Origin: Diphasiastrum complanatum
Taxonomy: Eukaryota > Streptophyta > Lycopodiopsida > Lycopodiales > Lycopodiaceae
Length of the DNA: 64,000 nucleotides
Assembly (NCBI GenBank): GCA_029204225.1
Contig: CM055111.1
Coordinates: 27,922,340-27,986,339, forward strand
Direction of reading: 5' to 3'
The translations under genes and the position numbers were made by a program. The notes beneath the pieces were generated by a model that worked only from the letters and a program-made list of their open reading frames with translations, had not been told where the DNA came from and ran no database searches. Positions 22,682 through 28,388 of the stretch are shown here, piece by piece; positions within the stretch are counted from its first letter, which is position 1; each line of letters begins with the position of its first letter.

Positions 22682-23546
22682 TGTGAAATTTTAGAGAAAT
22701 AAAGACCAAGAATGGATCTAGATCAGATCCTCAAGAGGTGTTGGAAGCTAGATTACATGGTCTACTAATCAACCAATGATTAGATCTAGAATTAGATCAA
22801 TTTCCCATAAAAAATCTAGCAAGAACAACAAGCAAATGATTAAACTTGAGACCTACTGCCTTCACACGTGTGAAGAACAGTACCTGTACGGAATTACAGC
22901 AGAGAGTGAAGTACACAAGTGTTAGAAAGCAATAGAACCATAAAATCACAACACAAATATGAGAATACTCAAGATATGCCTCCAAAACCAAGATATTGCC
23001 TCATTGATTTTTCAAAGTGGATCCATCATGGATTAAATACAAAAATCATCATACTCTCTCTCTAAGACACTTCCAGCACGTGTGAGACAGGTCATAGTGC
23101 TTATCCATATCCACTTTGGCTAAGATTCCATTAATTTGCCACATCATCATTGGTGGCTAGTGTTGACCTTCTAGATTCCTACAAATTAGGAGATAGGTCC
23201 TACAATCTAGGAGATTTGACTTTTGACATGTATGAAATCTATATACAATGGATCTGAACTTTCTATATGATATTTCACACGTGGGAGACCACTCCTACCC
23301 ATGTGATATAGCATTTTCTACCACTAGAATGGTGCCAAGTGTCATAATACTACTAAACTAGTTTTTGGCCAATTTAGCCACTAGTTTCCAATTTAAATGA
23401 TATGTACAACATTTATGATCTATCTAAATGACTTAGGCATAGATTTCACACGTGGGAACAGGCTCCACACATGTCTAATGATGATAGGTACAAGTCATTA
23501 TGGTATTTACAAGATTTAACCAAGTTAGCTTTTGCCAATTTTAACA
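22682..23546 (-). repeat. 3' LTR of the non-autonomous element
   Basis: This is 865 bp. CACGTG cores lie at 22865-22870, 23076-23081, 23278-23283 and 23449-23454; the first is part of a longer palindrome TTCACACGTGTGAA. A TATTTAA on the minus strand near 23033-23040 is a possible TATA box. Confidence 0.95.
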
Positions 23547-23556
23547 CTCCTCCTCA
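23547..23556 (-). other. Polypurine tract
   Basis: On the minus strand the sequence before the 3' LTR ends GAGGAGGAG, directly abutting TGTTAAAATT. This is the expected start site of plus-strand cDNA synthesis. Confidence 0.85.
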
Positions 23557-23663
23557 AAACTAACTTGATACATCTATGGTACATCTATTTACAACACTTA
23601 AGGCTGATCATTGCAGGTTCATAGGTGTGAAGATCAGCCAATGAGTTTGATGAAGATCCAAGA

Positions 23664-25679: not shown

Positions 25680-27510
25680 AGCACTCTATCAAATCACAAA
25701 AATCAGATTCAAACACCCCTATTGGACTCAACAAACACCAATGACTCTTTCTTTTGAGAGTTGGAATGGATTTGAAAAGATTTGACTCCTAGATTTTTCT
25801 TTTCTCTTGACTAGTTCACTCAACTTTTGATATTCTTGAACAAAGGATGGGTTTTGTTTCAAATACTTGAAAATCAAACTCAATCACTTCTTTTGGACTC
25901 ACTCTTGACCCAAATAATCTCACTCTTAAGATTTTGATTGAATTTGATTTGATTCGACAACAAATTAAACCACTAACTTTCACAAAAAAAAAATGATCTA
26001 CACTAGATCACATAAACTTGACATGTATACTTGATTCAAACACACAAAGATCAGATCCAATCACGCCTTTTGGAATCCTCTTGACCCAAATAATCTCACT
26101 CTTGAGATTTGGAATGGACATGAAATGGTTTGATAACAATCTATGTCAATAATTTTTCACCAAGCTTAAAAATTAGACATCTAGAGATTCACAAAGATCC
26201 CAACCATGTATGAACACTCAAATATGGACTCCTCCTTGTTCTATACTCCCAATGGGATCACAACTTGACCCTCACCCTCTCACAAAGAAAGTTGAATTAG
26301 AACTTATTTGAGTTTCATACATACAATGTCGAATTGTGCTCAAAAATTGAATTCATTCACCCCTATTGGACTCCACCAAGTACCAATGACTCTACCTCTT
26401 TAGAGTTGGAATGAAATTCAAAAATGTGATACTTCTCTCTCACTAAGATATGTGCTTACAAAGAGCTAATGCCACTTAGCAAGATTTGATCACAATGAAG
26501 GAGACAATTTTTCCACCAAAGTCAAGAAATGAGTTACTAGAACTTGCCCTCTACAAAGGAAGGAACTCTTAGGATTTTTGGATCAAACACTACACATGTG
26601 ACTTACACACCTCTATGACTCTCTTTCAAGCCAAACAAAACTCAACTCTTTGAGTAGGAGTGGAACAATGTGACTTAGATCTCAAAAATCACTTCTAGAA
26701 CTCTCCAACAATGCTTATCACTTGTATTGGTAGATTTTGCCTTTATGAGTGTTTGTGCTCTAGAAATTCACTTAAGATTTCACTTGGAGGACTTATCCAA
26801 GGCTGACTTCTAGCACTTAGATGCTTCTAGTCTCAACCCTTTCACTCTTGAACACATCTAGAGTGAAGATACAATGGATTTCAATCTCTTCCCTTGCAAA
26901 TCACTCCTTAATCTATGGTTTTTGGCAATCTTTCACTCTCAACTTTAATGCACACCCAAAGCATATGAAGATCAGCTTTAATGTACTGTAATAAAGATTC
27001 AAATCATCTATATGATTGATCTATACCAAGAACAAATCAAAGGAATAGAAACAATGCATTACAAAGCTTGAAAAATGCACTAGATTGACTAGTTTTGGGT
27101 GTATGAGGCATTAAATGCACCAAAACTGAATTTTATTGCTCATAACAGGTTATGTACGGCCTCACACGTGTGTTAAGTACACATGAAGCCCACAAAAATA
27201 TTTGGTACAAATATAATGATTCTATCTATCTATTCAAACTCGCTACCTCAAGATTAGCTAGTTTCCAAAAAACCTGCTAGTTTGGGTGTATGAGTAAGAT
27301 ATAGCATCAAACTGAAAAATATAGCTCCAAAACTGGTACTGTACGTCCTCACACGTGTGAAGAGTAACCCTGCATCCCACAACCAAGTTTGATGCACAAA
27401 TATCAAGGCTAACTAACTCTTCAAACTCGCCCACTCAAGATTAGTGAGTTTTCTCAAAAAACTTGCCAATCTGGGTGTTGTTTAGATCAATGCTTTAATC
27501 TCTTGTACTT
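25680..27510 (-). other. Long leader between primer site and ORF
   Basis: 1.8 kb without a long ORF. It contains diverged direct repeats, with a phrase near CACCCCTATTGGACTC followed by a short CTCTTT/AAGAG-type stem, at about 25715, 26065 and 26365. Related lines occur near 25885 and 26610. Two CACGTG palindromes, at 27165-27170 and 27352-27357, lie close to the primer site and share the context GTACG(G/T)CCTCACACGTGTG. The leader may act in packaging, dimerisation or transcription; that is inference. Confidence 0.6.
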
Positions 27511-27523
27511 GGCTCTGATACCA
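27511..27523 (-). other. Primer-binding site of the young element
   Basis: On the minus strand TGGTATCAGAGCC follows the 5' LTR terminus CA without a spacer. It is complementary to initiator tRNA-Met, the usual primer of plant copia elements. Confidence 0.93.
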
Positions 27524-28388
27524 TGTGAAATTTTAGAGAAATAAAGACCAAGAATGGATCTAGATCAGATCCTCAAGAGGTGTTGGAAGCTAGATTACAT
27601 GGTCTACTAATCAACCAATGATTAGATCTAGAATTAGATCAATTTCCCATAAAAAATCTAGCAAGAACAACAAGCAAATGATTAAACTTGAGACCTACTG
27701 CCTTCACACGTGTGAAGAACAGTACCTGTACGGAATTACAGCAGAGAGTGAAGTACACAAGTGTTAGAAAGCAATAGAACCATAAAATCACAACACAAAT
27801 ATGAGAATACTCAAGATATGCCTCCAAAACCAAGATATTGCCTCATTGATTTTTCAAAGTGGATCCATCATGGATTAAATACAAAAATCATCATACTCTC
27901 TCTCTAAGACACTTCCAGCACGTGTGAGACAGGTCATAGTGCTTATCCATATCCACTTTGGCTAAGATTCCATTAATTTGCCACATCATCATTGGTGGCT
28001 AGTGTTGACCTTCTAGATTCCTACAAATTAGGAGATAGGTCCTACAATCTAGGAGATTTGACTTTTGACATGTATGAAATCTATATACAATGGATCTGAA
28101 CTTTCTATATGATATTTCACACGTGGGAGACCACTCCTACCCATGTGATATAGCATTTTCTACCACTAGAATGGTGCCAAGTGTCATAATACTACTAAAC
28201 TAGTTTTTGGCCAATTTAGCCACTAGTTTCCAATTTAAATGATATGTACAACATTTATGATCTATCTAAATGACTTTGGCATAGATTTCACACGTGGGAA
28301 CAGGCTCCACACATGTCTAATGATGATAGGTACAAGTCATTATGGTATTTACAAGATTTAACCAAGTTAGCTTTTGCCAATTTTAACA
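27524..28388 (-). repeat. 5' LTR of the non-autonomous element
   Basis: 865 bp, the same as the 3' LTR except at 28277 (T instead of A). It carries the same four CACGTG cores, shifted by 4842 bp. As the upstream LTR it would drive transcription toward lower coordinates. Confidence 0.95.

What the first reader, a model, noticed from the sequence alone, without database searches (positions are those of the whole stretch)
22682..28388. Young LTR retrotransposon without polymerase but with an intact 671-codon orphan ORF
LTRs of equal length (865 bp) that differ at one base by eye, a perfect 5-bp target duplication, primer site and polypurine tract show a recent insertion. The only ORF is a zinc-knuckle protein with a large unrecognised C-terminal part. 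Non-autonomous elements that keep only gag are known in plants (TR-GAG type), but here most of the protein is not recognisable gag. An open frame this long in a young, otherwise decayed neighbourhood suggests it is kept by selection for mobility.
Basis: partly seen in the sequence, partly recalled or inferred. Interest (0 to 1): 0.8.

Follow-up and report, generated by a model that had tools for sequence, protein, structure and literature searches.

The report
Polymerase-less retrotransposon with fast-changing protein
A very young jumping element in a large plant-like genome has no polymerase of its own but carries one long protein gene whose reading frame is kept open while its amino acids change freely, so the element probably borrows another element's enzymes and uses the protein for something else.

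Summary
In detail: minus-strand LTR element 22682-28388, 865-bp LTRs with one difference, CGTTG duplication, primer site, purine tract. The '671-codon' ORF counts from a TTG; the supported ORF starts at an ATG and has 612 codons (25502-23664). It has no Pfam match above cut-off and no PDB match. The host genome holds 967 purine-tract/LTR junctions and at least two subfamilies. In 18 near-identical copies the ATG-ORF has no indel and one stop in one copy; the other frame breaks lie upstream of the ATG. Window against a B copy: 16 of 16 leader indels would break frame, 3 of 3 ORF indels would not. So the frame was kept by selection. Yet dN/dS over 17 copies is 1.04, and in the first internal repeat replicating-lineage changes are 38 nonsynonymous to 1 synonymous, singletons 50:15. 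The N-terminus is zinc-knuckle-like, the rest of unknown fold. Most likely a non-autonomous family, probably Copia-dependent, with a nucleocapsid-derived accessory protein. No partner was proven.

The parts
27524..28388 (-). 5' LTR (865 bp)
22682..23546 (-). 3' LTR (865 bp), one difference from the 5' LTR
22677..22681 (.). target-site duplication CGTTG, left copy
28389..28393 (.). target-site duplication CGTTG, right copy
27508..27523 (-). primer binding site TGGTATCAGAGCCAAG
23547..23555 (-). polypurine tract GAGGAGGAG
   Evidence: 967 genome junctions with up to 2 mismatches
25503..27507 (-). leader between primer site and ATG, full of stops, partly made of diverged repeated units
   Evidence: frame-breaking indels
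25503..25685 (-). open stretch upstream of the ATG; frame broken here in 3 of 18 A copies and in B copies L059 and L060
23664..25502 (-). ATG-initiated ORF, 612 codons plus stop
25413..25454 (-). zinc knuckle CX2CX4HX4C (ORF residues 17-30)
   Evidence: translation; sub-threshold Pfam zf-CCHC_2 match (E 0.31); match to a copia gag piece
25263..25301 (-). second, degenerate knuckle-like motif (ORF residues 68-80)
   Evidence: translation (E 0.005)
24495..25043 (-). internal repeat 1 of the ORF (residues 154-336); shared changes 38 nonsynonymous to 1 synonymous
23805..24356 (-). internal repeat 2 of the ORF (residues 383-566)
27707..28296 (-). stretch of the 5' LTR with four CACGTG motifs (first bases on the + strand 28291, 28120, 27919, 27707); the 3' LTR has the same four

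Best explanation
A young copy of a large family of non-autonomous LTR retrotransposons that probably depends on a Copia-type element. It supplies LTRs, primer site and purine tract; reverse transcriptase and integrase must come from elsewhere (inferred). It encodes one protein: a zinc knuckle of copia nucleocapsid type joined to a duplicated domain of unknown fold. Working model: this protein is a nucleocapsid-derived accessory factor that binds the element's own RNA and gets it into a partner's particles, or protects it on the way. Copies with a broken frame spread less, so the frame stays open, while most of the protein changes at about the neutral rate. Shown: element anatomy, family, a frame retained through the divergence of subfamilies, dN/dS near 1. 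Inferred: translation, RNA binding, use of partner proteins, dependence on Copia.
For: Intact ends and recent movement: (perfect 5-bp duplications in 15 of 18 copies; 0-1 LTR differences in 17 of 18, the 18th, L019, not comparable by position because two end bases are missing). Real ORF: (no stop between the internal repeats; 8.3-11.5 expected in neutral simulations). Frame retained: window against L060, 3 of 3 ORF indels are multiples of 3 against 0 of 16 leader indels (element 1100-2760; a 9-bp difference at 2781, just before the ATG, lies outside that range); indels shared by copies 5 of 5 multiples of 3 against 4 of 10 private ones (counted by hand; Fisher p 0.042). The knuckle resembles that of a copia gag (E 4e-4 for one comparison) in L074, which has copia gag, integrase and RT domains and the same 11-nt LTR end plus 12-nt primer site.
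Against: No expression, RNA-binding or particle data. dN/dS of 1.04 gives no sign that the amino-acid sequence as a whole matters. Of ten further B ORFs only three (L067, L069, L072) are free of stops and frameshifts, and a stop at codon 447 occurs in two of the copies (L059, L068). Two A copies moved although their frame upstream of the ATG is broken. L074 was picked by a pattern that fixed the LTR end and primer site, and its LTR otherwise does not match. No pol-bearing element with the same LTR was seen among the 30 junctions and two longer stretches looked at. Both structure models have mean pLDDT below 35.
Confidence: 0.5

Rival explanations
1. The frame, not the protein, is what is selected: a long ORF ending 117 bp before the 3' LTR keeps the transcript translated and shielded from nonsense-mediated decay, and the peptide is disposable.
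For: Open frame with dN/dS near 1 for the whole ORF and between the internal repeats (0.92 by counting, bootstrap 0.60-1.38; 0.76 and 1.22 by likelihood on two alignments); stop codon close to the purine tract.
Against: Residues 1-90 have the lowest dN/dS of the six regions (0.38, LRT 9.3; window against L060 0.09, LRT 12.5), although singletons there are also rich in synonymous changes (16:11); 38 alignment columns are invariant over both repeats in 16 sequences; repeat 1 departs from neutrality.
Confidence: 0.15
2. The protein is under diversifying selection, for example as an anti-silencing or competition factor that recognises the element's own repeated LTR motifs, working like VANC proteins of plant DNA transposons (recalled).
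For: Repeat 1: shared changes 38 N:1 S against singletons 50 N:15 S, Fisher p 0.0044, about 0.026 after six regions; internal-branch dN/dS at the upper bound of the fit, LRT 14.67 against 1, while terminal branches give 1.09. Three or four CACGTG per LTR at similar places in subfamilies whose LTRs differ widely.
Against: The signal is a lack of synonymous changes (p 0.008) and not a surplus of nonsynonymous ones (p 0.55), so constraint on the RNA would also explain it; the whole-ORF comparison has p 0.048 only, and the whole-ORF internal-branch test is not significant (LRT 1.94); the leader motifs are not kept in L060; no DNA-binding evidence.
Confidence: 0.15
3. A relic: the protein served an earlier element and the present burst simply copied one master with an intact but useless ORF.
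For: Among 18 A copies changes in the ATG-ORF are 18 N, 2 S, 1 stop (neutral expectation 18.6% S, 5.1% stop); dN/dS near 1; most B ORFs looked at carry a stop or frameshift (7 of 10), as old dead copies would.
Against: Subfamily B, about 6% different in the ORF, has the same start, end and frame, and the indels shared by copies are all in frame, so the frame outlived one burst.
Confidence: 0.1
4. Gag-only (TR-GAG type) element whose gag is too diverged to recognise.
For: Zinc knuckle, single ORF, no pol.
Against: The knuckle sits at the N-terminus (residues 17-30) and no copia gag domain was found before or after it, although the same library finds that domain in other elements of this window and in L074.
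Confidence: 0.1

Closest known systems
TR-GAG elements of plants (PMC8704663: abstract and passages seen; the original paper is not held)
   Same: LTR element with one ORF and no pol; the passages report transposition of one such element in Arabidopsis ddm1 and its high similarity to a potentially autonomous element of the same ATCOPIA63 subfamily
   Different: No recognisable gag domain here; knuckle is N-terminal; about 500 residues without a match; frame kept but amino acids not conserved
Bs1 of maize (seen only as a mention in two passages of PMC7264820; its own paper is not held; details recalled)
   Same: Polymerase-less LTR element with a chimeric ORF
   Different: Bs1 carries sequences from known host genes; here no source for the C-terminal part was found and it contains an internal duplication
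LARD elements (recalled; search listing only)
   Same: Non-autonomous, long internal region
   Different: LARDs are recalled as non-coding; this one has an ORF with a retained frame
Ty1/Copia elements such as L074 in the same genome
   Same: Primer site, 11-nt LTR end (both fixed by the pattern), knuckle type
   Different: L074 has copia gag, integrase and RT domains; its LTR does not otherwise match

Membership tests
LTR retrotransposon | two LTRs with TG...CA ends, primer site, purine tract, target-site duplication | tested here: met
LTR retrotransposon | dispersed copies in the genome | tested here: met
   (967 junctions, control 0)
Ty1/Copia superfamily | pol of Copia type (IN before RT) | tested here: not met
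   no pol domain found, so it is not filed as a Copia element; dependence on one is inferred
Ty1/Copia superfamily | LTR end and primer site shared with a Copia element | tested here: inconclusive
   L074 shares 23 nt but was selected for it
TR-GAG | single ORF coding a recognisable gag domain | tested here: not met
   no gag Pfam in the ORF; positive controls
TR-GAG | related autonomous partner in the genome | tested here: inconclusive
   no pol-bearing element with the same LTR seen; of the first 30 listed exact junctions 27 match this ORF over 200 or more codons, 1 a fragment, 2 not at all
LARD | no coding capacity | tested here: not met
Bs1-like gene-capturing element | ORF with a recognisable host-gene segment | tested here: inconclusive
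   no Pfam match above cut-off, no PDB match; the protein library gave no match for a copia gag control either, so it cannot exclude a plant source

The most novel reading that the evidence does not exclude
A very numerous LTR lineage has replaced gag-pol by one adaptively diversifying protein that is not gag, encoded on the element and acting on its own LTR or RNA motifs, so that an element without a polymerase keeps its own evolving arms-race factor.
Probability: 0.2. Interest if true: 0.8.

Novelty: new variant of a known kind. Interest (0 to 1): 0.5.

Why it matters
Non-autonomous LTR elements are usually seen as non-coding passengers or as gag-only helpers. Here hundreds of copies and several subfamilies let one separate selection on a reading frame from selection on its amino acids, and the first is seen without the second. 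That makes testable what a polymerase-less element gains from coding: RNA packaging, escape from RNA decay, or an arms race with silencing or with competitors.

Tried and rejected
Protein library: no match, but a copia gag from the window had none either, so this is no evidence of orphan status. PDB by sequence and by profile: none. Phage records and viral contigs: none. Structure models: mean pLDDT 33.4 and 34.6; no fold search was made. L044/L045 as partner: they match the family only in the last 135 nt before the LTR and in part of the LTR; the stretch upstream of L044 (L063) holds an unrelated copia element in the opposite orientation. Pattern for a copia-like purine tract next to this LTR start: 0 matches. 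First tree-based run had a faulty optimiser start (negative LRTs); replaced. (fixed differences on partial, partly misaligned copies: N 51, S 9; stricter rule 25.5:8.5, no excess) is weaker than and not relied on. A 61-place family with LTR end TTTGACA and the same primer context: compared by eye with the 100 listed junctions, none of its 12 places on C1, C2, C4 and C6 up to 11.3 Mb lies within 10 kb of one, so it looks like a different family; its inside was not read. Papers: four literature searches for a matching element (listings only) showed none that I recognised as this one; most subscription papers are not held.

Full report
Observation. The host genome is a 1.74 Gb assembly in 5176 contigs; contig C23 is still 42 Mb long. 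Size and contigs would fit the clubmoss Diphasiastrum complanatum, but that is recalled and untested.

The ORF. From stop to stop the frame has 673 codons; 500 Markov sequences for each of eight settings never gave more than 230. In 18 complete, near-identical copies (the window and 17 of the best LTR hits, so the youngest by choice; three more fetched loci held no inside and were dropped), 15 keep the whole frame. The three breaks by indel (a 19-bp deletion shared by L011 and L013, an inserted base in L021) lie before the ATG at 25502; from that ATG no copy has an indel and one (L021) has a stop. L011 and L013 have different target duplications, so a lineage with the upstream break still moved. 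The working ORF is therefore taken to be the 612-codon one.

Family structure. A purine-tract plus LTR-start pattern has 967 matches with up to 2 mismatches, control 0. The first 30 listed places (exact matches, in contig order) fall into 8 of subfamily A (LTR at least 98.6% identical), 6 intermediates, 13 of subfamily B (inside pieces about 86-93% identical, first 270 nt of the LTR 74-84%) and 3 with little or no ORF (L033, L044, L045). In the covered part of the ORF no frameshifting indel was seen in 7 of 8 A, 3 of 13 B (two of them near-identical) and 2 of 6 intermediates; one of those two has a frameshift further upstream (L051 = L061). Of ten more B ORFs fetched, three (L067, L069, L072) have neither stop nor frameshift.

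Frame selection. Window against the B copy L060: 16 of 16 leader indels (element 1100-2760) are not multiples of 3, 3 of 3 ORF indels are; a 9-bp difference at 2781, in the open stretch before the ATG, lies outside the leader range. Against L061: leader 3 of 4 not multiples, ORF 1 of 2 (a private 1-bp deletion) not. In one search the indels shared by copies were 5 of 5 multiples of 3, private ones 4 of 10 (counted by hand, leaving out the L062 truncation and a 3-bp one shared only by the near-identical L065 and L066; Fisher p 0.042). Between the two internal repeats, about 0.55 changes per site apart, no stop arose although 8.3-11.5 would be expected. One stop (codon 447) occurs in two B copies, L059 and L068, that are not sisters on the tree.

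Amino-acid selection. Between the internal repeats dN/dS is 0.92 by counting (bootstrap 0.60-1.38) and 0.76 or 1.22 by likelihood, by alignment (ten out-of-frame blocks of the DNA alignment dropped). Window against eight partial copies it is 0.71-1.66, against four longer ones 1.52, 0.91, 0.64 and 0.71; none differs significantly from 1. With 17 of the 22 aligned copies on a tree (four further A copies and L066 left out as near-identical) it is 1.04 for the whole ORF (LRT 0.08), 1.39 on internal and 0.91 on terminal branches (internal against 1: LRT 1.94); for residues 91-611 it is 1.26. Residues 1-90 with the knuckle give 0.38 (LRT 9.3) and 0.09 against L060 (LRT 12.5), but singletons there are equally rich in synonymous changes (shared 10:6, singletons 16:11), so constraint is likely but not proven. 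Repeat 1 gives an internal dN/dS at the bound of the fit (LRT 14.67) with neutral terminal branches (1.09). Counting changes directly: whole ORF shared 117 N:22 S, singletons 165:54 (p 0.048); repeat 1 shared 38:1, singletons 50:15 (p 0.0044; six regions tested); repeat 2 35:6 against 52:18 (p 0.23). In repeat 1 it is synonymous changes that are short (p 0.008) rather than nonsynonymous ones in surplus (p 0.55), so diversifying selection and constraint on the RNA both remain open. Residues 337-382 also gave a high ratio (LRT 11.7) but have no synonymous change at all, singletons included (8:0 and 16:0), so they are uninformative.

A caution. Window and L060 differ less in the ORF (110 of 1833, 6.0%) than in the leader (168 of 1587, 10.6%) and far less than after the ORF (30 of 114), and their LTRs only match well in part. 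Exchange of parts between lineages, or constraint on the ORF's RNA as a whole, would both do this. Against L061 leader and ORF are equal (2.0% each).

Mechanism. Without pol the element must borrow reverse transcriptase and integrase. L074, found with a pattern for the same LTR end and primer site but another leader (32 places, 27 of them with the same next letters TTCA), has copia gag, integrase and RT domains and a knuckle resembling that of our ORF (E 4e-4 for a single comparison), but its LTR does not otherwise match. It shows that copia elements with such ends exist, not that they are the helpers.

Regulation. The LTR has four CACGTG motifs and the leader two, against two in the other 58 kb of the window. 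B and intermediate LTRs have three or four at similar places despite wide divergence (L059, L060, L061), but the L060 leader has none and the L061 leader one. A role in transcription is likely but untested.

Verdict. A real, young, non-autonomous LTR element with a retained reading frame and a protein that is not conserved as a whole: a new variant of a known kind.

Noticed in passing
22682-23546, 27524-28388: Four CACGTG (G-box) motifs per LTR; three or four at similar places in the LTRs of L059, L060 and L061, two of which are widely diverged.
   Followed up: partly
25697-26423 and 27089-27478: Leader consists in part of diverged repeated units (about 68-81% alike).
   Followed up: partly
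18134-22563 and 28288-29293: The element appears to sit inside a decayed LTR element: integrase and RT domains on the left and knuckle-like ORFs on both sides.
   Followed up: no
57270-57830: 186-aa ORF whose sequence recalls a Penelope-like reverse transcriptase (recalled); no Pfam, meaningful PDB or protein-library support.
   Followed up: partly
L025, next to the 5' LTR: Primer-site start altered, with four extra bases, although the copy has a perfect target duplication.
   Followed up: no
G000, 61 places listed: Another family with LTR end TTTGACA and the same primer-site context; inside not read.
   Followed up: partly
L060 versus window: The stretch after the ORF differs by 26%, the leader by 10.6%, the ORF by 6.0%, and the LTRs match only in part: possible exchange of parts.
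   Followed up: partly
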